A DNA stretch of 64,000 nucleotides, taken from positions 124,001 through 188,000 of the forward strand of contig QHVT01000003.1 in assembly GCA_003223645.1 (NCBI GenBank), written 5' to 3'. This DNA comes from Acidobacteriota bacterium (GTDB taxonomy: Bacteria; Acidobacteriota; Thermoanaerobaculia; Gp7-AA8). The notes below the pieces were generated by a model. That model saw only the letters and a program-made list of their open reading frames with translations, was not told the origin of the DNA and searched no databases. Shown piece after piece: positions 22,627 to 60,386 of this stretch; the stretch's first letter is position 1; each line of letters starts with the position of its first letter. A program made the position numbers and the translations under genes.

Positions 22627-22713
22627 TGTGGAGCGGCGGCCGCCCTCGGCCGCCGGGTCAATTGGCAGTGATCATCCGCCGTCCTTGGCGCCCGAGGGCG
22701 GGCGCCGCTCCAC
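22627..22713. repeat. Palindromic element, family D (GTGGAGCGGCGGCC), copy 1
   Basis: Left arm GTGGAGCGGCGGCC near 22628 and right inverted arm ending GCCGCTCCACA at 22713, in the gap between the convergent DUF5916 and lipase genes. The inner part is more diverged than in the 71-bp copies. A plausible bidirectional terminator position. Confidence 0.75.
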
Positions 22714-23741: not shown

Positions 23742-26117
<2,376 letters not shown>

Positions 26118-48400: not shown

Positions 48401-48712
48401 TACATCAACTCCGCCGACACCATGCCGCAGATCAATGGCAGTGAAACCTACACGCTGAAAAACGGCGCGACCACCGTCGACGGCGCGACTGTCGCGATGG
48501 CCAGCGCCGGAGGCGAAAGCCTCAAGCGCCTCAGCGGCTGCAGCGCGGCGGGAACGGAGTCGAGCTGGAGCCGCACCGCGTCATCGACCGGCAACCCCGG
48601 GGCGGGCGGGCCGGCGACGTGCAACAAGGGCGTGTTCATCAACGAGTTCTCGGATGCGTTGGGCACCGGAAATTTCATTTACGAATTCGTAGAGTTGTTT
48701 AACGATAAATAG
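45401..48712 (+). CDS. Large secreted protein: PHP-type metallohydrolase (CehA/McbA-like), Ig-like and lamin-tail-like repeats
   Basis: 1103 aa. Signal peptide (about 1-20), an N-terminal beta domain, then a PHP-like domain from GSTHSHSNWSDG (His207, His209) through DYWLINEHNH, GMEW, GVLNHP and ADHDAH, the usual metal-binding motif order of CehA/McbA-like phosphoesterases. Two tandem modules follow, each an Ig-like domain (TAPSNGATVSG; ASDNVGVTRVEFWLDG) plus a lamin-tail-like domain (YTIPAGT, GYLVIAR, NEFSDA/NEHSDA). The pair at about 590-845 and 850-1103 is a recent-looking duplication. Substrate unknown; probably an extracellular metal-dependent hydrolase on a modular stalk. GGAGG precedes the ATG. 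Confidence 0.88.
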   Translation: MRFLSPALVLLVLAFPLLGQEFDDCDANFIAFIGSSAYQFSPNHPGELGTVRLFSILSYQRAAHEKRYGFAVWQVRIDRVEDGSRVMSTGGRAFIGRDGAAVAEFYWDGRDDTGQLVPAGKYRYTFVARYLGDRIARLRALPDSYDAVLEDHEEALASSDEVIVDYDLPLQQSRDLRLSAHATSCQVQQHAPMEAGFAYNFYYGSTHSHSNWSDGGQPTTNCASGNAYGSGTFAPADVYNYARNTAGLDYWLINEHNHLINDAMDTNLPPTTEVKVRQRYADGLAQANTSTVSGSFVALYGMEWGVLTNPDEGHVTLIETPKLFGWETCSTCNGPNPECTAGTNCYFDVFTPKRFAYLTLYARSVANPSSAGALGVLNHPSAGHFDNLAFDANADNAIQGVAVRSGLAFTTATDCANANVGATDYSDQWKAALNKGFHVGPTADHDAHCNNYGMGLPTRTVYLAASLTKANIMAAHRARHFYATEDPNAQLVFRTSDSAHVMGDIFNAAGGATLVMNLYDPDGETISSIELWRGQIGGGVPAGPYATWSNTSSATTTESLTSGTYYYYVHAVQSDGHDLWSSPMWITYQAGGGDTTPPTTSITAPSNGATVSGTTDVTASASDNVGVTRVEFWLDGALQSTDTTSPYAWSWNTASVANGSHTLASKAYDAANNAGTSTNVSVTVSNVVSGSADVSGWIVTQANAAGTYTIPAGTIIPAEGYLVIARDATKAAFETFWARTLGSNVVYLTTAGAMPVINGDENFTLKNASSVVVDGPTPSQPATAAKSLQRVDPCGSTWNTLVDTSGNPGSGAGGGCGGGVKINEHSDASGTGNFIYEFIELHNDSATAGDTTAPTVSITAPSSGATVSGALNVTASASDNVGVTTVEFYLDGVLKSTDTTSPYAWSWDTTTATNASHALVAKAYDAANNIGTSTTVNVTVSNGVPINIGGYTITQANATLTYTIPAGTTIPSHGYVVIGRNATQAQFQTFWGVTLGSNVVYINSADTMPQINGSETYTLKNGATTVDGATVAMASAGGESLKRLSGCSAAGTESSWSRTASSTGNPGAGGPATCNKGVFINEFSDALGTGNFIYEFVELFNDK

Positions 48713-48782
48713 TGGAGCGGCGGCCGCCCTCGGCCGCCGACCTCTCGCGAGAAACCGGCGGCCGAAGCGGCCGCCGCTCCAC
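48712..48782. repeat. Palindromic element, family D, 71-bp form
   Basis: GTGGAGCGGCGGCC arm, inner CTCTCGCGAGA loop, inverted arm ending GCCGCCGCTCCAC. The first G is the last base of the upstream TAG stop codon. Confidence 0.88.
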
Positions 48783-49810: not shown

Positions 49811-49838
49811 CTGTGGAGCGGCGGCCGCCGCTCCACAG
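49811..49838. repeat. Minimal family D palindrome
   Basis: A perfect 28-nt palindrome, CTGTGGAGCGGC / GGCC / GCCGCTCCACAG, consisting only of the outer arms of the 71-bp element. It starts 5 nt after the DUF4440 stop. Confidence 0.85.
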
Positions 49839-50575: not shown

Positions 50576-52936
50576 ATGCTCTTCAAGAAGTCTCGCTTCG
50601 GTCCTCGCCTCGTTCACGCGGCGCGCTCGGGCGCGCATTACCGCGACGTGCACGTTTTCATCGGCGGCACGGGAGCGGTCGGCGGCGCTGCGGCGATGCA
50701 GATGGTGGCGATGTTCGAGGAGATGATGACGATCGCGCCGCCGTCGTCGGCCGACGACGTGCCGGTGCTCATCGTCACCGGCCGCAGCGACGATGAAGTG
50801 CATACGTTCGAGTCGCGCCTCAAACGCTTCACGCGCTCGCGCTGGGGCGCCGGCACGATCCCGAAGCACTTCGAGCACGGCTACCTCACGCCGGGCGGCG
50901 TCTACGTCGCGATCTCGAAGTTCGAGTTGAAGCCGGTGCCCGGACTCGAGATCGTGACCGATGCCGACAGCGCGTCGCGCCAGAGTGCAGTCGACGAGTT
51001 TCTGAATTTCGCGAACGTGTCGACTCCCGAGCAACTCGTCGACTACGTGCGCGCAACGCGTCCCGTCACGTCGTTCCTCGAAGATCGCAAGCAGCGCCTG
51101 CGCGACTACGGCGACAAGCCGTTCCGCTCCGTGCTTCTCGGCTTTCCGCTGCCGAGCATCCTCGCGTATCAAACCGGCGGTCTCGGCATCGTCGCGAACG
51201 CCCTCGGCCTCGGCACGGAGCTCACGACGCGCGTGCGCGACGAATTCGAGAACGCGTTCGCCGACGATCTCGTCGCCGTGCGCGAACAGTGGGGCGCGCG
51301 CGTGCTGGTCGCGCACACTACCGGCGTCGGCGGGATGTATGACGAGACGCCCGACGCCCGCACGACGCCGCGCCTCGGCTTCGCGCACGCGTCGCGCGAC
51401 GAAGCGCTGCGGCAGAAGCACATCGACGCCGAGGAGCTGATGCAGAAGTACGCGCAGCGCGGCGTGCTCATGCTCGTCACCGCCGCCGCGATCGGCATCG
51501 ACGAAGTGCGCATGCGCGAGTCGATTCCGCTGCACGGCGGCATCGTGAAGGCGCTGCGCGACGCGAAGCATGAGCTCTTCCGCGGCGCGCGCGAACGCAA
51601 GCAGTCGATCCATCTCTTCAAGCCGATCACGCTGAAACTGGATGTGGCGACCGCTGCCCTCAGCGGTCGCGGTGCCGCTGAGGGCAGCGGCACCCACAAT
51701 CTGCACTTCAAGCTCGGCGACGAAATCCATCCCGAGTACGCCATCCGCAGCGGCGAGAACGGCTTCTTCAGCGTCGCGAATGCGGACGCGCTCTACCGCG
51801 TGATGAAAGTCGCGTCGGTGTCGGAGCTCGGACACGTGCTCGCATCGGTCGGCCTTCTCGGCGACGATCCGAACGTGCCGTGGTTCAAAGACAGCATCTG
51901 CTATTACACCGAGACCGTGAATTCGAAGCAGGTCTTCGATTTTCTCTATCAGCCGGTGCTGCTGAACGCGCAGCTGAGCGGGATCGATCCGATGGCGCTG
52001 CAGGACCTCGGCTCGGCGAAACATCAGGCCGAGCTGCACACGCTCGCGCTGCTCATCACGCTGCATCGATTGCGTACGCTCGACATCGACGCACTCGAGG
52101 AGAATCCGCACGCGTCGTTCGATCCGAAGCGCTTCCTCCTCGACAACTCGCGTGCGCTCACGTTCCGCGACGTCGAGCTGTGGGACGTCGACACGCTCGC
52201 AAAGGACCTGCACACGCTCGTCACCGCCGACAAGCCGGGACAACTGCTGACGCTGAAGCCGATGCGCGATCCCGGACAGTTCGGCGCGCGGGACGAAGCG
52301 CATCTTGCCGTCCTCAAAGTCGTGCTCGACGCCGTCTTCACCGTCACGTCGCTCGGAACGCCGATCGTCGTCGACGACAACACCGCGCGCTGCGGCTACT
52401 ACGTCGCGCCGTTCGGGAAGATCGTGACGCAGGAAGACTCGCTCGCGCGAATGTTTGACGACCCGGCGCCGGAGTACCGCGCGTTTCAAATGAGCGTGAA
52501 CGGCTTCATCGATCTCCGTCCGCACGGCATCGTGTCCAGCGTGAAACTTCCCGCCGATCTCCACCCCGGCGCGGTGACGACGCATCGCGACGAAGCATCC
52601 TTCGCCGCGCGCGTCGCATCCCTCGAGCCGTATTCATTTTTCGCGACGTGCGGCCTCGTCGCGATCCTCCACCGCCTCCGCGCCCTCGGCCGCCTGCTCA
52701 CGCAGTCCCGCACCGACCTCGGCACCATGCAGGACTGGCTCTGGACCATGCTCCGCGACGAACGCGGCCACACCTACGTCGTCCCCGGCGTCGTCGAAGC
52801 CCTGCGCATGATCTCCGAGGCGCAGGAGAAGACGACGGGAACCGAGTGGCTCGACGGGATCTGGGGTTATGAGCGAAGACTGCCGAAGATGCGGCTGGCG
52901 GAGATTGTCGACGCTGTGGAACGGCGGAAGCACTAA
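50576..52936 (+). CDS. Large protein of unknown function with an N-terminal Rossmann-like motif
   Basis: 786 aa, cytoplasmic (no signal or membrane helix). Starts at MLFKKSRF; upstream codons only translate the palindromic element. The strand-loop VHVFIGGTGAVGGAAA (about 22-37) looks like a dinucleotide-binding GxGxxG loop, and a RVLVAHTTGVGGMYDE segment (about 240-256) recalls a second strand-loop in NAD-dependent enzymes. After that I recognise nothing; the C-terminal half is helical. It contains an in-frame 54-bp palindromic element at residues 357-374. Possibly a multi-domain dehydrogenase-like enzyme, but the function is open. Confidence 0.65.
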   Translation: MLFKKSRFGPRLVHAARSGAHYRDVHVFIGGTGAVGGAAAMQMVAMFEEMMTIAPPSSADDVPVLIVTGRSDDEVHTFESRLKRFTRSRWGAGTIPKHFEHGYLTPGGVYVAISKFELKPVPGLEIVTDADSASRQSAVDEFLNFANVSTPEQLVDYVRATRPVTSFLEDRKQRLRDYGDKPFRSVLLGFPLPSILAYQTGGLGIVANALGLGTELTTRVRDEFENAFADDLVAVREQWGARVLVAHTTGVGGMYDETPDARTTPRLGFAHASRDEALRQKHIDAEELMQKYAQRGVLMLVTAAAIGIDEVRMRESIPLHGGIVKALRDAKHELFRGARERKQSIHLFKPITLKLDVATAALSGRGAAEGSGTHNLHFKLGDEIHPEYAIRSGENGFFSVANADALYRVMKVASVSELGHVLASVGLLGDDPNVPWFKDSICYYTETVNSKQVFDFLYQPVLLNAQLSGIDPMALQDLGSAKHQAELHTLALLITLHRLRTLDIDALEENPHASFDPKRFLLDNSRALTFRDVELWDVDTLAKDLHTLVTADKPGQLLTLKPMRDPGQFGARDEAHLAVLKVVLDAVFTVTSLGTPIVVDDNTARCGYYVAPFGKIVTQEDSLARMFDDPAPEYRAFQMSVNGFIDLRPHGIVSSVKLPADLHPGAVTTHRDEASFAARVASLEPYSFFATCGLVAILHRLRALGRLLTQSRTDLGTMQDWLWTMLRDERGHTYVVPGVVEALRMISEAQEKTTGTEWLDGIWGYERRLPKMRLAEIVDAVERRKH
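51644..51697. repeat. 54-bp family J palindromic element inside the 786-aa gene
   Basis: Palindromic 54-mer read in phase zero as exactly 18 codons (residues 357-374, encoding V-A-T-A-A-L-S-G-R...G-T-H). Its reverse complement matches 56191-56244 at 52 of 54 positions. The two mismatches are opposite each other in the stem (A-T versus G-C). Confidence 0.92.
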
Positions 52937-52939
52937 AAT
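52934..52939 (+). promoter_or_regulatory. Proposed -10 hexamer overlapping the stop codon of the 786-aa gene
   Basis: TAAAAT, whose first three bases are the upstream stop codon, ends 8 nt before the ATG at 52948. No ribosome-binding site. Confidence 0.4.
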
Positions 52940-52947
52940 CGAGAACG

Positions 52948-53325
52948 ATGGGACGAATTAGGCAAGCAATTCGGATCGATGGGCGAGAGTGCTGGACGTT
53001 GTTTGATACAGGAGCTCGCAACACGTACGTCATTCCCTCGGTTGCGCAGTTGTTGAATACAACCCCTACACCGATGCCGATGCGTACTGCACTCGGAGGC
53101 ACGGTCAAAGAGACCAACACCAGCGCCACCCTCAACGCGGAAATCGAGGGAAAGACGATCTCGACCTATGCGCTCGTCATCAACGAGATCGGGAAAGACG
53201 AAGAAGGCACTCCGATCGAGGTCCTCTTCGGAGCACTTGCGATGCAGCAGTGGGGGATTCGCCCCGTTCCTGACGAGGAGCGCCTCGATCTCAGTCACTA
53301 TCCTGAAGAATTCCTCGAATTCTGA
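52948..53325 (+). CDS. Retropepsin-like aspartic protease domain protein
   Basis: 125 aa. The motif LFDTGARNTYV (Asp20-Thr-Gly-Ala) matches the active-site DTGA/DSGA of retroviral-type aspartic proteases, which function as dimers. A second conserved segment, ALAMQQWGI (about 95-103), corresponds to the helix after the flap in this family. No membrane anchor or N-terminal extension, so it is an isolated domain, like several bacterial clan AA proteins of unknown role. It may process cytoplasmic substrates or be inactive. Confidence 0.7.
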   Translation: MGRIRQAIRIDGRECWTLFDTGARNTYVIPSVAQLLNTTPTPMPMRTALGGTVKETNTSATLNAEIEGKTISTYALVINEIGKDEEGTPIEVLFGALAMQQWGIRPVPDEERLDLSHYPEEFLEF

Positions 53326-53402
53326 CCAGTGGAGCGGCGGCCGCTTCGGCCGCCGACCTCTCGCGAGAATCCGGCGGCCGAGAGCGGCCGCCGCTCCACT
53401 GG
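53326..53402. repeat. Palindromic element, family D, extended form
   Basis: CCAGTGGAGCGGCGG to CCGCTCCACTGG, containing the same CTCTCGCGAGA loop as 48712-48782. It begins directly after the stop codon of the retropepsin-like gene. Confidence 0.88.
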
Positions 53403-53418
53403 TTTCGATCGAAGACTC

Positions 53419-55047
53419 CTACGACGCCCGGAGGCTCTTCCTCATCCCCCACAACAAGTGGCTGAGATATCCACGCCGCGACTCGCCCGTCGTCACGATC
53501 AACAGCTTCGTGATCTTCAACTCCAGCGGATCCGTGTAGAGCAGGATCAGCATCTCGCGGAGGAAGCTCGTCGAGAGGGTGATGTCGTTATCGGTGCCGA
53601 CGCCGAGGCGGAGGCCTTTTTTCTCCCACCACGAGAACGGGTGGTCGGCGTAGTCCGCTAGTTGACCGGTGAGGCGTTTGTTCGACGACGGCAGGGAGAT
53701 GAGCGTCAGGCGCTTGTCGATCATCCGATTGAGCACGTCGTGCTGGTAGGTCTCGACCTCGGTCGCGTGATGGAACTTCGTTTTCGTCGCCAGCGTCGCT
53801 TCTTCGTCGGTGAGCGGGACGCCGTTGATCAGCTTCTCGCGGATCGCTTCGCGTCCGCTGGTGTCCATGTCCATCAGTTCCGCGAGCTCGCTCGATCTCG
53901 GATTCACGGCTTCGCCTCGGCGGTTCGCGCGCAGGATGCGTTGCAGCATGCTGTGGAAGTAGAAGTTCGGGTTGATGCCGAGGGAGAGGCCGTGCTCGAT
54001 GGCGTCGACGCGCCAGATGTTCATGGCGTTGTCGACGGCCTGGATGCCGTGGCGCAGCGTGTCCCACGTTTCGCCGTGATGGCTGCGCGTGCGGAAGCCG
54101 TACGCCTGCAGCTTGCGGATGCCGACGCGCATCTCCTGAAAATGCGCCTTGCGATAGAAGCCGCGCTCGTTGCCAACGGTGTCGATCTCGGTGACGACGT
54201 CGCGCAGTTCCGGATGACGCGCGAGCAATTCGACGAGTTGGCGCACCTGATCGTCGAAGCTCTCGCGTTTCGTTTTGTAACGCGTCGCGTCGTAGAAGCC
54301 CGCCTCCTTGCGGAAACTCGGCGAGAGGATGAATTGGAATTGCGGGGCTTCGGATTGAAACGATCGGAAGCCTTCGTACAAGCCGAGGAGCACGTCCTCG
54401 GCGGTGACGCTCTCAAGTCCCGGGATTTGTTCCGACGGATCGGTCGTATCGCGGAACAGCGTGAACTTGAGTCGCAGGCCGCCGACGTTCGCGGTGCGAT
54501 AGAGACGGCTGGCCATGTGATACGCGGCATCGCGATGCGCTTCGCGGCTCGTGAGGATCAATTTCGGCAGATAGAGAATCTGCAGATAGCGATCGAAGCG
54601 TCCGCTCTCCGCGAGCCGGATCAATCGGTCGACGTCGTGCACGTTGCGGATCGGCAGCGCGTCGTCGCCGTAGACCTGCGCGATCTTCGACTCGTACAGC
54701 GCGCGATGCGGACCTTCGAGGAGCGGCGCGAGGCGCGGGTAGACGAAGTCGGCGGCGAGTGAGCCGGTGAGATGAATGTGCTCGTCGCGGAACGGAAGCG
54801 GAAACGTGTGGAAGAACCCGGCCAGCGCGTGCGACAGCGGATGATCGAGCAGCGCTTCGATCGGCGCGGCGTGGACGCGGAAGCGTCCGAGGAGCGCGTG
54901 GAACTCGCGGATCGCATGCGCGAGCTCGGCGTCGGAGTCGAGCTGCGGCGCCTGTTCCGCGAGCACGAGCGTGTCCTCGAGTGAGAGCCCGTTCGTCTCG
55001 CTGATCAGGTGTGTGAGAAAGCGCGTGAGCCGCGCGACGACGTCCAT
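53419..55047 (-). CDS. Adenosine-deaminase-like metal-dependent hydrolase (large)
   Basis: 542 aa, about 200 residues longer than classical adenosine deaminase. It has the motif set of that superfamily: DEHIHLTGSL (His90, His92), TRSHHGETW (His/Glu pair), DAIEHGLSL (metal/catalytic His) and GVGTDNDITL (Asp-containing, although TDND replaces the TDDP of true deaminases). The N-terminal about 85 residues are helical and the insertion before the SHHGE motif is long. The substrate might be a nucleoside or another purine-like amine; not predictable. A single gene divergent from the TPR membrane protein, 36 nt apart. Confidence 0.7.
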   Translation of the reverse strand: MDVVARLTRFLTHLISETNGLSLEDTLVLAEQAPQLDSDAELAHAIREFHALLGRFRVHAAPIEALLDHPLSHALAGFFHTFPLPFRDEHIHLTGSLAADFVYPRLAPLLEGPHRALYESKIAQVYGDDALPIRNVHDVDRLIRLAESGRFDRYLQILYLPKLILTSREAHRDAAYHMASRLYRTANVGGLRLKFTLFRDTTDPSEQIPGLESVTAEDVLLGLYEGFRSFQSEAPQFQFILSPSFRKEAGFYDATRYKTKRESFDDQVRQLVELLARHPELRDVVTEIDTVGNERGFYRKAHFQEMRVGIRKLQAYGFRTRSHHGETWDTLRHGIQAVDNAMNIWRVDAIEHGLSLGINPNFYFHSMLQRILRANRRGEAVNPRSSELAELMDMDTSGREAIREKLINGVPLTDEEATLATKTKFHHATEVETYQHDVLNRMIDKRLTLISLPSSNKRLTGQLADYADHPFSWWEKKGLRLGVGTDNDITLSTSFLREMLILLYTDPLELKITKLLIVTTGESRRGYLSHLLWGMRKSLRAS

Positions 55048-55083
55048 GCGCGTGTGATCGTATCAACTACACTACGCCCGTTC

Positions 55084-57171
55084 ATGGGACGAAAATCCCG
55101 CCAGAAAACGACGGACAAGTTGACGGCGGCCCGCGTGGACACAACGCCGCCGCCGATTGATCGCAAACCGGTGCTGATCGCGTGCGTTGTCCTCGTCGTC
55201 GTCACGTTCGCCGTCTTCGCGCGCGTCGCGTCGCAGGACTTCATCAACTTCGATGATCCCGACTACGTGACCGCGAACTCGGTCGTGCGCGACGGCGTGA
55301 CCGCGCACGGCATCGGTTGGGCATTCACGCAGTTTCATTCGTCGAACTGGCATCCGCTGACGTGGATCACGCACATGGTCGACGTGCAGCTGTTCGGCCT
55401 CAATGCCGGCGCGCACAAGCTCGTGAACGTCGCGTTCCACGCTGCCGCTGCGGTGTTGCTGCTGCTGTTTCTCTTCCGCGCGACCGGCGAGCTCTGGCCG
55501 TCGGTCATTGTCGCCGCGCTCTTCGCGCTGCATCCGACGCGCGTCGAGTCGGTGGCGTGGGTGTCCGAGCGCAAAGACGTGTTGAGTGCGCTCTTCTGGA
55601 TGCTGACGCTGTACTTGTACGCGGGCTACGTGCGCGACGAGAAGAAAACGAGGCTGATCGGTGTCACGATCGCGTTCGCGTGCGCGCTGATGGCGAAGCC
55701 GTCGGCGATCACGCTGCCGTTCGTTCTGCTGCTGCTCGATTGGTGGCCGTTCCAGCGTTTGAGCCGCAAAGCGATCCTCGAGAAACTTCCGCTCTTCGCG
55801 CTGCTGATCCCCTCGATTCTCCTCACGCTGCGCGCGCAGACCGGCGCGATGGGAACGCTCACGCTCAGCGGCCGCATCGCGAACACAATCCTGTCGTACG
55901 TCGAGTACCTGCGCGTCCTTGTCTGGCCGTCCGGCCTCGCGGTGCTTTATCCCTATCGACTGTCCATCCAAACGATCGCCGTCGTCCTCGCTGCGCTCGT
56001 CCTCATCGCGATCACGGCCGCCGCGATCTACTTCGCGCGCCGCGCACCGTTCGTCATCGTCGGCTGGCTCTGGTTCCTCGGCACGCTCGTGCCGATGTCC
56101 GGACTCGTGCAGGTCGGACGTCAGGCGATGGCCGATCGCTACACATACATTTCCTTCGTCGGTCTGTTCATCGCGATCGTCTGGTCTTTTGTGGGTGCCG
56201 CTGCCCCCAGCGGCACCGCGACCGCTGGGGGCAGCGGTCGCCACAAGGTGCTGCGTGCGGGGGCGATCGCCATTCTCATCGCGTTTTGTGCAGTGACCTA
56301 CGTGCAGGCCGGCTACTGGAAAAACAGTGAGACGCTGTTCGCGCGTGCGGTCGCCGTGACGAAGCGCAACGACATCGCGCATTTGAACCTCGGCGCTGCG
56401 CTGCTCGATCGCGGCGCGGTGCAGGATGCGCTCGTGCATTTTCGGGAGGCGGTCGCGATCGATCCGTCGAACGCGCTCGCGCAGAACGACCTCGGCCGCG
56501 CGCTCGCCGCCACCGGCGATACCGCCGGCGCGGAGAAAGCGTACACGCAGGCGCTCGCGCTCGCGCCGTCGCTGACCGAGGCGTATCGCGGACTGGCGGG
56601 CTTGAAACTGAAAAGCGGTCATCGCGACGAGGCACTTGCGCTTTTGCAGAAGGCGAACGGGATGCAGCCTGATGCGGCGACGCGCGCAGATCTCGCGGTG
56701 CTGCGCAACGACGTCGACACCGCGCTCACCGAATACGCGACCGCCGTTCGCGACGCGCCGAACAACGCCGAGATCCGCAATAGCTACGCGGCGATGCTCG
56801 CGCGGAAAGGACGCGACGCGGAAGCGCTCGAGCAGTATCGCGAGGCGCTGCGCATCGAGCCCGGTCATTACGAAGCGAACATGAACATCGGTGCGCTGCT
56901 GAGCCGCACCGGACACGACAACGAGGCACTCGGATATTTTTCGAAGGCCGCGGAGTCGCGAACGAACACGCCCGAGCCGCACATCTATCTCGCGCTGATC
57001 TACGGAAATCGCGGCGAGGCCGCGCGTGCGGTGGCGGAAGTCGAGGCGGCGGCGCGGATCGATCAGGCCGAGGCGAATCGCCTGTTCACGAACGCCGTGA
57101 GAATCCCGTTCCACGAGACCAATCTCGCCGACTATCGCGCGGCGTTGCTCGGGCGGCGCCGGCCGCAATAA
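55084..57171 (+). CDS. TPR membrane protein with a glycosyltransferase-like (DUF1736/TMTC-type) membrane domain
   Basis: 695 aa. After a basic N-terminus, about 10 membrane helices (residues 30-440) with DFINFDDPDYVTAN and SSNWHPLTWITHMVD, motifs of the bacterial TMTC-like O-mannosyltransferase relatives. A C-terminal TPR block (about 435-690) follows, with NDLGRALAATGDTAGAEKAY-type repeats. In eukaryotes TMTC proteins mannosylate secretory proteins; the bacterial function is unknown. Residues 370-387 are encoded by a 54-bp palindromic element in a loop between helices. No ribosome-binding site is visible; TACACT at 55068 may be a -10. Confidence 0.82.
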   Translation: MGRKSRQKTTDKLTAARVDTTPPPIDRKPVLIACVVLVVVTFAVFARVASQDFINFDDPDYVTANSVVRDGVTAHGIGWAFTQFHSSNWHPLTWITHMVDVQLFGLNAGAHKLVNVAFHAAAAVLLLLFLFRATGELWPSVIVAALFALHPTRVESVAWVSERKDVLSALFWMLTLYLYAGYVRDEKKTRLIGVTIAFACALMAKPSAITLPFVLLLLDWWPFQRLSRKAILEKLPLFALLIPSILLTLRAQTGAMGTLTLSGRIANTILSYVEYLRVLVWPSGLAVLYPYRLSIQTIAVVLAALVLIAITAAAIYFARRAPFVIVGWLWFLGTLVPMSGLVQVGRQAMADRYTYISFVGLFIAIVWSFVGAAAPSGTATAGGSGRHKVLRAGAIAILIAFCAVTYVQAGYWKNSETLFARAVAVTKRNDIAHLNLGAALLDRGAVQDALVHFREAVAIDPSNALAQNDLGRALAATGDTAGAEKAYTQALALAPSLTEAYRGLAGLKLKSGHRDEALALLQKANGMQPDAATRADLAVLRNDVDTALTEYATAVRDAPNNAEIRNSYAAMLARKGRDAEALEQYREALRIEPGHYEANMNIGALLSRTGHDNEALGYFSKAAESRTNTPEPHIYLALIYGNRGEAARAVAEVEAAARIDQAEANRLFTNAVRIPFHETNLADYRAALLGRRRPQ
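56191..56244. repeat. 54-bp family J palindromic element inside the TPR membrane-protein gene
   Basis: The reverse complement of the 51644-51697 element with two compensatory differences, read in phase zero as 18 codons (residues 370-387, V-G-A-A-A-P-S-G...R-H). Its position in a predicted inter-helix loop suggests toleration. Confidence 0.92.
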
Positions 57172-57305: not shown

Positions 57306-59561
57306 ATGAAGTTGACACGAAATCCCCTGATTCTTGCAGTGACGATTGCGGTCGCTGCGTGTACGACCTCATCAACGACAAACGACGTAAATATGACGAC
57401 GACAACCAGCACAGCCGCTCCCGCCCCCGTCGCGGAAACGACTCCGCCCCCGCCACCGCCCGCACCGGCGCCCGCGCCCGCCGATCAGAATCCGCTGCTC
57501 GCGCCGTGGACCGGACCGTACGGCGGCGTCCCGCCATTCGACAAAGTCAAAGTCTCCGACTTCAAGCCGGCGCTCGAAGCGGCGATGGCGGAGAACCTCG
57601 CGGAGATCGATCAGATCGCGAACAATCCCGAGCCGCCGACGTTCCAGAACACGATCGCCGCGCTGGAGAAGTCGGGACGCACGCTCGATCGCGTCGGCAC
57701 GATCTTCGGCATCTGGAGCTCGACGATGAGCGACGACGACTTCCAGCCGGTCGAGCTGGAAATGGCGCCGAAGCTCTCCGAGTTCGGCGACAAGGTCACG
57801 CAGAACGAGCCGCTGTTCAAGCGCATCGAGGCGGTCTACAACGCGCCGGAGAAGGCGAGCCTGACGCCCGAGCAGCAGCGGCTGACGTGGCTCTACTACA
57901 CGAACTTCGCGCGTTCCGGCGCGCGCGCCGACGCGGAGTCGAAGAAGCGCCTCGTCACGATCAATCAGCAGCTCGCCGAGCTGTATACGAAGTTCGCGCA
58001 GAACGTGCTCGCCGACGAGAAGGACCGTTACGTCACGCTCGACAGCGAAGCGGACCTCGCGGGACTCACGGACTCGATCAGGAGCGGCGCAGCCGCGGCC
58101 GCGGAAGCGAAGGGCCTGAAGGGCAAGTGGGTGATCGCGAACACGCGCTCCGCGATCGAGCCGTTCCTCACGTACTCCGATCGCCGCGATCTTCGCGAGA
58201 AAGCGTGGCGGATGTTCGTCAACCGCGGCGACAACGGCGACGCGCATGACAACAACCAGATCATCACCGACATCCTCCGCCTCCGCGCCGAGCGCGCGCA
58301 TCTCCTCGGCTACAAGACGCACGCGCACTGGCGCCTCGAGAACTCCATGGCGAAAACCCCGGAGCGCGCGATCGAGCTGATGGAGGCCGTGTGGAAGCCG
58401 GCCGTCGGTCGCGTGCGCGAGGAAGTGCGCGACATGCAGGCCGTCGCCGACAAGGAAGGCGCGCACATCAAGATCGAGCCGTGGGATTACCGGTATTACG
58501 CCGAGAAAGTGCGCAAGGCGAAGTACGCCCTCGATCAGAACGAAGTGAAGCAGTACCTGCAGCTCGACAAAATGCGCGACGCGATTTTCTGGGTCGCCGG
58601 TGAGCTGTTCAATTTCAAATTCACGTCGGTCGAAGGCGTGCCCGTCTATCAGCCCGACGTGAGAGTGTGGGAAGTGACGGACAAGACCACCGGCCGCCAC
58701 ATCGGACTCTGGTACTTCGATCCGTACGCGCGCGCCGGCAAGCAGTCGGGCGCGTGGATGAACGCGTATCGCAATCAGCAGAAGTTCGACACCGACATCA
58801 CGACGATCGTCTCCAACAACGCGAACTTCGTGAAGGGCGCGCCCGGCCAGCCGCTGCTCATCTCCTGGGACGACGCGACGACGATGTTCCACGAGTTCGG
58901 CCACGCGCTGCACGGCCTCTCGTCGAACGTCAACTATCCGTCCGTCTCCGGCACCGCGGTCTTCCGCGACTACGTCGAGTTCCCGTCGCAGCTGCTCGAG
59001 CATTGGCTGCCGACGAAGGAAGTGCTGCAGCGCTTCGCGGTCAACGTGAAGGGCGAGCCGATTCCGCAGAAGCTCGTCGACCGCATCAAGAGCGCGGCGA
59101 CGTTCAATGAAGGCTTCCGCACCGTCGAGTACTTGTCAAGCGCGATCGTCGACATGAAGCTGCATCTCGCCGGCGATCAGAAGATCGATCCGGACGCATT
59201 CGAAAAACAGACGCTCGCGGAGCTCGGCATGCCGCACGAGATCGTGATGCGCCATCGCACGCCGCAGTTCCTGCACGTGTTCGCGGGCGACGGATATTCG
59301 GCCGGCTACTACAGCTATCTGTGGGCCGATGTGCTGACCGCCGACGCCGCGGAGGCGTTCGCCGAAGCGCCGGGCGGCTTCTACGACCAGGGTGTCGCGC
59401 AGCGGTTGCGGCAGTACATCTTCACCGTCGGCAACACGGTCGATCCGGCGGAAGGCTACAAAGCATTTCGCGGGCGCGATCCGAAGATTGACGCGCTCAT
59501 GCGTAAGCGCGGATTCCCGGTGCCCGGCGCAACGGTTCGTGTCACTATTCCGAAGCAGTGA
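57306..59561 (+). CDS. M3-family zinc metallopeptidase (oligopeptidase/dipeptidyl carboxypeptidase-like), lipoprotein
   Basis: 751 aa. Signal with lipobox VAAC (Cys about residue 19), then a Pro/Ala-rich linker. The M3 thimet/Dcp-type catalytic domain contains HEFGH (His529, His533) in TTMFHEFGHALHG and the downstream glutamate-containing segment. GGAGG lies 9 nt upstream of the ATG. Probably cleaves small peptides in the periplasm. Its stop overlaps the GTG of a CheY-like gene (GTGA), so these two are co-translated despite unrelated function. Confidence 0.93.
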   Translation: MKLTRNPLILAVTIAVAACTTSSTTNDVNMTTTTSTAAPAPVAETTPPPPPPAPAPAPADQNPLLAPWTGPYGGVPPFDKVKVSDFKPALEAAMAENLAEIDQIANNPEPPTFQNTIAALEKSGRTLDRVGTIFGIWSSTMSDDDFQPVELEMAPKLSEFGDKVTQNEPLFKRIEAVYNAPEKASLTPEQQRLTWLYYTNFARSGARADAESKKRLVTINQQLAELYTKFAQNVLADEKDRYVTLDSEADLAGLTDSIRSGAAAAAEAKGLKGKWVIANTRSAIEPFLTYSDRRDLREKAWRMFVNRGDNGDAHDNNQIITDILRLRAERAHLLGYKTHAHWRLENSMAKTPERAIELMEAVWKPAVGRVREEVRDMQAVADKEGAHIKIEPWDYRYYAEKVRKAKYALDQNEVKQYLQLDKMRDAIFWVAGELFNFKFTSVEGVPVYQPDVRVWEVTDKTTGRHIGLWYFDPYARAGKQSGAWMNAYRNQQKFDTDITTIVSNNANFVKGAPGQPLLISWDDATTMFHEFGHALHGLSSNVNYPSVSGTAVFRDYVEFPSQLLEHWLPTKEVLQRFAVNVKGEPIPQKLVDRIKSAATFNEGFRTVEYLSSAIVDMKLHLAGDQKIDPDAFEKQTLAELGMPHEIVMRHRTPQFLHVFAGDGYSAGYYSYLWADVLTADAAEAFAEAPGGFYDQGVAQRLRQYIFTVGNTVDPAEGYKAFRGRDPKIDALMRKRGFPVPGATVRVTIPKQ

Positions 59562-59911
59562 AGACGATCCTCATCGTCGATGACGACGAGCCGACGCAGA
59601 AGCTGCTCGAAGTCCTGATGCAGCGTTACGGATTCGCCACCGAGGTCGCCGCCAATGGTGCGGCGGCGATCTCGCGGTTGCGCGACGGCGACTATGCGTG
59701 CGTCATTCTCGATCTGATGATGCCGGAAGTCGGCGGCTACGACGTGCTTGCATTCATCGACGAACAACAAAAGCCGGTCAAGGTGATCGTCTGCACCGCC
59801 GCACTCCCCACGCGCACAGAAAAATTCGATCCGAAATTCGTGAAAGCGGTCGTGCGCAAGCCGTTCGACATCGAACAACTCGCGGCGACGGTGGCGGGGT
59901 TGATGGAGTAG
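59558..59911 (+). CDS. Stand-alone response regulator receiver (CheY-like)
   Basis: 117 aa from a GTG start that overlaps the M3 peptidase stop by 4 nt. IVDDDEPT provides the acidic pocket (Asp8-10), Asp52 is the phospho-acceptor in VILDLMMPE and Lys103 (VVRKPFD) completes the site; the usual Thr/Ser switch is in VIVCTAAL. No output domain. A partner kinase is not in the immediate surroundings. Confidence 0.93.
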   Translation: MKTILIVDDDEPTQKLLEVLMQRYGFATEVAANGAAAISRLRDGDYACVILDLMMPEVGGYDVLAFIDEQQKPVKVIVCTAALPTRTEKFDPKFVKAVVRKPFDIEQLAATVAGLME

Positions 59912-59956
59912 GGCGGCTCTGTCGCCACCGCAATCTACCAATTCTGGTAATTCATC

Positions 59957-60166
59957 CCATCGATTCTGGGATCGATCCCACCGGTGATGGGATTGATGCC
60001 ATCGATTCTGTTATCGATCCCACCGGCGATGGGATTGATGCCATCGATTCTGTTATCGATCCCACCGGCGATGGGATTGATCCCATCCATTCTGTTATCG
60101 ATCCCACCGGCGGTGGTATCGATCCCATCGATTCTGGCATTCACGCCATCGACAATGGCATTCATC
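59957..60166. repeat. 42-bp tandem repeat, five units
   Basis: Five consecutive 42-nt units starting CCATCGATTCTG, the central ones nearly identical and the outer ones diverged. Each contains ATCGAT/GGGATCGATCCC-type palindromes and an internal half-unit similarity. The 14-codon period leaves long frames open on both strands, but none has convincing start signals. It lies in the convergent 478-nt gap between the CheY-like gene and boxB. Confidence 0.9.
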
Positions 60167-60172
60167 CCTTAC

Positions 60173-60386
60173 GCTCGAGTGTCATCCCGAGCGTGAGCGA
60201 GGGACCTGGGGCTCGGGTGGCGGCACGAAGCTCGTGCAACGCAGCCCCGCCCGCCCAAGTCCCTCGCGCTCGAGTGTCATCTCGAGCGTGAGCGAGGGAG
60301 ACCTGGGGCTCGGGTGGCGGCACGAAGCTCGTGCAACGCAGCTCCGCCCGCCCAGGTCCCTCGCTTACGCTCGGGATGACACTCGG
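60173..60386. repeat. Duplicated palindromic element, family I (GTCATCCCGAGCGTGAGCGAGGGACC)
   Basis: Two direct copies of about 95 bp (60173-60267 and 60268-60363), the whole bounded by inverted outer arms, so that it folds as one long hairpin. The right end is 3 nt from the boxB stop. It could act as a bidirectional terminator between the convergent genes. Confidence 0.8.

What the first reader, a model, noticed from the sequence alone, without database searches (positions are those of the whole stretch)
51644..56244. Same 54-bp palindromic element in opposite orientation inside two unrelated genes, in phase, with a compensatory base pair
Seen: 51644-51697 (in the 786-aa gene) and 56191-56244 (in the TPR membrane-protein gene) are reverse complements at 52 of 54 positions. 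Both start at a codon boundary and are exactly 18 codons. The two mismatches pair with each other in the hairpin stem, A-T in one copy and G-C in the other. Paired change is what selection on a folded form predicts. Inference: a small mobile palindrome able to enter coding sequence, with constraint on its DNA or RNA hairpin, comparable in kind to Rickettsia palindromic elements.
Basis: seen in the sequence. Interest (0 to 1): 0.8.

Follow-up and report, generated by a model that had tools for sequence, protein, structure and literature searches.

The report
Palindromic DNA inserted in-frame into genes
A tiny palindromic mobile DNA has spread through one bacterial genome and sits in about 35 unrelated protein genes, always in the one reading phase that adds an 18-amino-acid linker, which shows how selfish DNA can live inside coding sequence without breaking it.

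Summary
Both window copies are 54-bp head-to-head pairs of a GTGG-tagged hairpin (REPIN layout). The genome holds about 45 compact copies plus many long relatives (83-99 bp, two extra central hairpins). The half-site was found in none of 395 other genomes sampled from the phylum, nor in the one same-genus genome held. In an unbiased 2.3 Mb, compact copies lie inside genes (17 of 18) and long ones almost never (1 of 30; p about 7e-11). Of 39 compact copies, 35 lie in open reading frames, all in phase 0, in both orientations, reading VATAALSGRGAAEGSGTH or VGAAALSGTATAEGSGRH; hosts include PanC, PurL, IspE and DNA ligase. Insertion-free orthologues exist. In most hosts tested the net gain is below 18 residues, so native codons were lost. 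The claimed compensatory base pair is not supported: 8 of 9 compact copies with the altered loop base have it on one side only. Best reading: a non-autonomous REP-dimer element, probably moved by a REP-type HUH transposase, whose compact form is tolerated in genes. It works like Rickettsia palindromic elements. The clean split by length class, the phase purity and the loss of host codons are the new aspects.

The parts
51643..51698 (+). Compact element, copy 1: T + 54-bp GTGG-hairpin-hairpin-CCAC + A; in phase 0 in the host gene, encodes VATAALSGRGAAEGSGTH
51647..51670 (+). First hairpin of copy 1: 10-bp stem GCGACCGCTG/CAGCGGTCGC, loop CCCT
51671..51694 (+). Second hairpin of copy 1: 10-bp stem GGTGCCGCTG/CAGCGGCACC, loop AGGG
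50579..52936 (+). Host gene 1 (785 aa, no Pfam match); insertion-free relatives G001 and G011 at 76 and 65% identity
56190..56245 (-). Compact element, copy 2, opposite orientation to copy 1 and to its host gene; in phase 0, host reads VGAAAPSGTATAGGSGRH
55009..57171 (+). Host gene 2 (720 aa, membrane protein with C-terminal TPRs); the insert lies in a loop between predicted membrane segments and is absent from relatives in other genera

Best explanation
The 54-bp element is the compact form of a genome-restricted, non-autonomous mobile element made of two inverted GTGG-tagged hairpins (a REP dimer, REPIN layout). It spreads as a folded unit and enters genes. The compact form is a multiple of three and has no stop in phase 0 on either strand, where it encodes an 18-residue linker of mostly small residues, so these insertions survive selection; copies with the two extra central hairpins survive almost only between genes. 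SHOWN: the family, its layout, the two length classes, their split between genes and intergenic DNA, the single phase, insertion-free relatives, and a net host gain that is usually below 18 residues. INFERRED: that the insert is translated as part of the host proteins (from phase purity); that the compact form arose from the ~90-bp form by loss of the central hairpins (same outer halves); that a REP-associated HUH tyrosine transposase (RAYT) moves it in trans as a single-stranded hairpin, with some host DNA lost at the target.
For: Family size and absence elsewhere. Location split 17/18 against 1/30, p=7e-11. Phase 0 in 35 of 35 intragenic copies (29 firm), 13 and 22 in the two orientations; p=4e-5 even under a T^A target null with stop-phase insertions removed. 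A copy that entered in the stop phase has a 1-bp loop deletion restoring an open frame; the one long copy in a gene is 93 bp and in phase 0. Inserts lie inside conserved enzyme domains. Empty sites and net gains. Stable two-hairpin fold, z -8.3. A RAYT (NF047646) in the genome, set among another GTGG-headed REPIN family that is also often in genes in open frames.
Against: No RAYT lies beside this family; the only one found is linked to a different stem sequence, and the junction context differs (W-T before GTGG here, C-Y-W there). No movement was observed, no empty site was seen at base level in the same species, and translation is inferred. The gene calls are my own and cannot see broken genes. 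Six of the 35 intragenic copies have weak coding signal upstream of the insert. One further copy is doubtful (phase 1, near a gene start).
Confidence: 0.72

Rival explanations
1. Same mobile in-frame family, but moved by something other than a RAYT, for example a DDE transposase acting on short ends or capture of excised hairpins during break repair; the REP resemblance would be convergent.
For: Different flank preference from the RAYT-linked family; no RAYT beside it; loss of host residues at most sites fits repair-type capture; CGTC-tagged REPs, including some Rickettsia elements, are described as lacking an associated transposase gene (PMC3733652).
Against: The head-to-head GTGG-tagged hairpin dimer is the layout RAYTs act on; by eye the flanks of 39 compact copies show no direct repeat; no autonomous element with the same ends was found in 2.4 Mb.
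Confidence: 0.25
2. The phase purity is set by the target sequence, not by selection on the peptide: insertion at T^A, plus a stop in one phase, leaves mostly phase 0.
For: T...A flanks are invariant, with W outside; the TGA in the third phase removes the commonest WTAW codon position.
Against: After removing stop-phase insertions, WTAW sites still predict 25% in the other open phase; 35 of 35 has p=4e-5, and 35 of 36 with the doubtful copy 3.6e-4. Loss of host codons suggests that T and A may belong to the element rather than to a T^A target.
Confidence: 0.15
3. The pairing of the loops is under selection (compensatory evolution of the folded form).
For: The window pair itself; an association of loop alleles among long copies (p=0.008).
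Against: In compact copies 8 of 9 altered loops are one-sided, and no private substitution is compensated.
Confidence: 0.05
4. The shared 18 residues are a conserved protein motif or a horizontally shared domain, not an insertion.
For: The same peptide occurs in many proteins.
Against: The hosts are unrelated and their orthologues lack it; it occurs in both orientations of the same DNA; it also occurs between genes.
Confidence: 0.01

Closest known systems
REPINs and RAYT transposases (Bertels and Rainey 2011, PMC3116915; Ton-Hoang group 2021, PMC8266576)
   Same: Two inverted REP hairpins with a 5' GT-G tag form one unit; hundreds of half-sites in one genome; RAYT present in the genome
   Different: REPINs are described as essentially extragenic (14 of 1,067 most common 16-mers overlap genes in P. 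fluorescens SBW25); here the compact class is almost all intragenic, has no spacer, a GTGG tag, and is not linked to the RAYT gene
Intragenic GTAG/CGTC REPs, e.g. Opitutus terrae and Rickettsia conorii (Di Nocera and colleagues 2013, PMC3733652)
   Same: REP dimers inside ORFs encoding about 20-30 residues, including DNA ligase and repair genes
   Different: In the sections of that paper read here, no split of one family by length class, no single phase and no loss of host codons is described
Rickettsia palindromic elements (Ogata 2000, 2002; cited from reviews PMC2229807 and PMC10969869)
   Same: Palindromic mobile DNA in frame in many unrelated conserved genes, tolerated by the enzymes
   Different: RPEs are about 100-150 bp with an unrelated sequence; here the element is 54 bp, has two adjacent hairpins and is read in both orientations
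NEMIS/Correia elements of Neisseria (PMC2229807)
   Same: A short open-frame form is found in genes while a longer form with stops is almost only intergenic
   Different: 107/155 bp elements with target duplications, of another sequence; not a REP dimer

Membership tests
REPIN (RAYT-mobilised REP doublet) | Two REP hairpins in inverted, head-to-head order forming one folding unit | tested here: met
REPIN (RAYT-mobilised REP doublet) | Conserved GT-G type tetranucleotide outside the hairpin | tested here: met
   GTGG at both ends of nearly all 39 compact copies; the described tag is GTAG, so this is a variant
REPIN (RAYT-mobilised REP doublet) | REP copies flanking a RAYT gene in the same genome | tested here: not met
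   The single RAYT found is flanked by a different GTGG-headed family; a second RAYT in the missing 3% cannot be excluded
REPIN (RAYT-mobilised REP doublet) | Extragenic location | tested here: not met
   Compact class 17 of 18 inside genes; long class 1 of 30 inside, so the long class meets it
REPIN (RAYT-mobilised REP doublet) | Mobilised by the RAYT | not testable with these tools
   Needs a cleavage and transfer assay
Rickettsia palindromic element | In-frame palindromic insert in many unrelated conserved genes, absent from orthologues | tested here: met
Rickettsia palindromic element | Belongs to one of the RPE sequence families of Rickettsia | not tested
   RPE sequences were not at hand; the half-site was found only in this genome among 396 sampled from its phylum. 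I do not file it as an RPE
MITE of a DDE transposon | Target-site duplication flanking each copy | tested here: inconclusive
   Flanks of 39 compact copies were read by eye only and show no consistent direct repeat; no base-level empty site was available

The most novel reading that the evidence does not exclude
A REPIN lineage has split into two forms within one genome: a long intergenic form and a compact form specialised for life in genes (length a multiple of three, open in one phase on both strands, small-residue peptide), and its insertion routinely replaces up to about 14 native codons, so that it supplies a standard linker to essential enzymes.
Probability: 0.4. Interest if true: 0.78.

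Novelty: new variant of a known kind. Interest (0 to 1): 0.6.

Why it matters
In-frame palindromes in genes are known from Rickettsia and a few REP-rich genomes, but what decides whether an element lives in genes or between them is hard to test when elements differ in many ways. Here two length classes of one family, in one genome and with near-identical ends, segregate almost completely between genes and intergenic DNA, and the genic class uses one phase. That is a natural experiment on how selection sorts mobile DNA, on how enzymes such as PanC and IspE absorb an 18-residue insert, and on whether REP-type elements insert with loss of target DNA.

Tried and rejected
(1) Compensatory pairing: rejected on 39 compact copies. 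(2) Conserved protein motif or shared domain: rejected, hosts are unrelated and orthologues lack the residues. (3) An autonomous transposon with the same ends: an apparent 3-kb pair of half-sites on C4 proved to be two separate elements. (5) A class-wide pattern search used a wrong spacing and missed even the own genome, so it is void; one search replaces it. (6) Simple insertion at T^A with nothing lost: fits C7:46619 (+18) but not PanC, RlmI, OCD, PurL or ligase.

Full report
OBSERVATION. Each is GTGG, hairpin, hairpin, CCAC, flanked by an invariant T and A. As single-stranded DNA the 56-mer folds into an outer 4-bp stem with two adjacent 10-bp hairpins with CCCT and AGGG loops, -28.9 kcal/mol, z -8.3, no shuffle as stable.

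FAMILY. In the 6.38-Mb, 51-contig genome the half-site TGTGGNNNCCGCTGNNNNCAGCGG occurs 241 times exactly and 266 times with up to one mismatch, against zero for the reversed pattern. In 2.37 Mb read directly, half-sites pair head to head in two length classes, 56 bp and about 83-99 bp. The long class has two extra hairpins between the outer halves; the 90-bp form has the same two outer halves as the compact form. About 45 centre matches to the compact form exist. The exact half-site was found in none of the 395 other genomes sampled from the phylum; at one mismatch, 60 relatives, including the one same-genus genome, gave three stray single hits. On this evidence the spread is recent, and copies differ from the consensus at 0-3 positions.

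WHERE THEY SIT. I trained a hexamer coding model on long ORFs and called genes on 2.33 Mb (coding 82-87% by contig). Compact copies: 17 of 18 inside genes. Long copies: 1 of 30. Fisher p=7e-11; the long class is depleted in genes (p=2e-22 against 84%), while the compact class does not differ from random placement. Over all 39 compact copies read, 35 lie in ORFs and all 35 are in phase 0, 13 in the gene's orientation and 22 against it; 3 are intergenic and 1 is doubtful (phase 1, near a gene start). Six of the 35 have weak coding signal upstream of the insert, so the firm count is 29. The copies outside the unbiased contigs were fetched because they matched, so only the 18 and 30 carry the location statistics.

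IS THE PHASE MEANINGFUL? One of the three phases holds TGA in the common allele; the other two are open. Taking T^A as target, the codon position of T in WTAW sites in genes is 882/212/626 for positions 1/2/3. Phase 0 would then make up 36% of insertions, or 75% once stop-phase insertions are removed. 35 of 35 has p=4e-16 and 4e-5 respectively, and 35 of 36 with the doubtful copy 3.6e-4. So stops alone do not explain it; the peptide of phase 0 is presumably better tolerated. Special copies agree: C21:105239 enters in the stop phase and has a 1-bp loop deletion that keeps the frame open through the element; C8:36266 is a long copy of 93 bp in phase 0 inside a gene; C8:158931 is a half copy in frame in a gene. 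A 55-bp copy at C41:320157 lies between genes. These are marks of an element that is translated, although translation itself was not observed.

HOSTS AND EMPTY SITES. Pfam places inserts inside PanC, an RlmI-like methyltransferase, ornithine cyclodeaminase, acyl-CoA ligase, saccharopine dehydrogenase, DNA ligase, histidine kinase and TonB-receptor domains, and between or beside domains in PurL and others. IspE is identified by PDB matches. Relatives of both window hosts lack the insert. With chimeric queries of host flanks against six relatives, the median net gain per host was 4, 4.5, 8, 8, 9, 10, 10.5, 12, 13, 13, 18, 18 and 20 residues for 13 hosts. Within a host the relatives mostly agree (RlmI +8 in six of six, PanC +10 in five of six, saccharopine dehydrogenase +18 in four of six), so the shortfall below 18 belongs to this genome: native residues were lost with, or after, the insertion. 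In PanC solved homologues carry 11 residues where this protein keeps 6 plus the 18. Variable loops are a caveat, and IspE is a weak case. Whether the loss came at insertion or later is not resolved; I favour insertion because the element ends are intact in 39 copies.

COVARIATION. The two loop alleles (T or C at position 18; A or G at 39) assort independently in compact copies: 25 unchanged, 8 one-sided, 1 two-sided, p=0.56. Private substitutions are uncompensated. The long class shows an association (20, 3, 0, 3; p=0.008), which descent in subfamilies can explain. I do not count this as selection on pairing.

MOBILITY. One Y1 transposase gene was found, a REP-associated tyrosine transposase by NCBIfam. 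It sits among four copies of a second REPIN family, GTGGAGCGGCG..., with 92 paired copies in the sample. That family is also often inside genes (26 of 84 copies at least 90 bp from either gene end), with lengths of every residue modulo 3 and open frames, which calls for frame-compensating host changes at those sites and so fits insertion with loss of host DNA. These counts depend on gene calls that require an open frame, so broken genes are not seen. The context before GTGG is C-Y-W in that family and W-T in the present one, so a shared enzyme is plausible but unproven. Published work shows that REP transposases recognise the tag plus the hairpin, and that a GTGG variant is cleaved at CA or CC (PMC8266576).

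KNOWN OR NEW. REPINs (PMC3116915), intragenic REP dimers in Opitutus and Rickettsia (PMC3733652), RPEs and the NEMIS short/long split (PMC2229807, PMC10969869) are each a precedent for one aspect. I found no report of this family, nor of the combination of features, in the papers read. The library is open-access only, and the RPE paper asked for was not held.

LIMITS. 

Noticed in passing
L039:1444-1968 (G000:C4, about 53065-53590): The C-terminus of the RAYT gene runs into a copy of its own REPIN, so the last ~30 residues of the transposase are encoded by the element it is linked to.
   Followed up: partly
window 22628-22713, 25081-25151, 48712-48782, 49813-49836, 53329-53399: Copies of the second, RAYT-linked REPIN family (GTGGAGCGGCG...CGCCGCTCCAC); the one at 25081 lies in an open frame inside a predicted gene.
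   Followed up: partly
G000 sampled contigs: The RAYT-linked REPIN family lies deep inside predicted genes in 26 of 84 sampled copies, 18 of 27 firm ones starting in one phase (reading GAAAASAA...), although most copies are 70-71 bp and not a multiple of three.
   Followed up: partly
G000:C51:219288-219432, G000:C5:194742-194867: Partial half-sites stacked in tandem in front of a full long copy, as if the element had inserted into or beside itself.
   Followed up: no
window 59698-60291: An ORF with a tandem repeat reading about GIDPTGDGIDAIDSVIDPTGD follows the response-regulator-like gene at 59558-59911; it may be a spurious frame over a DNA repeat.
   Followed up: no
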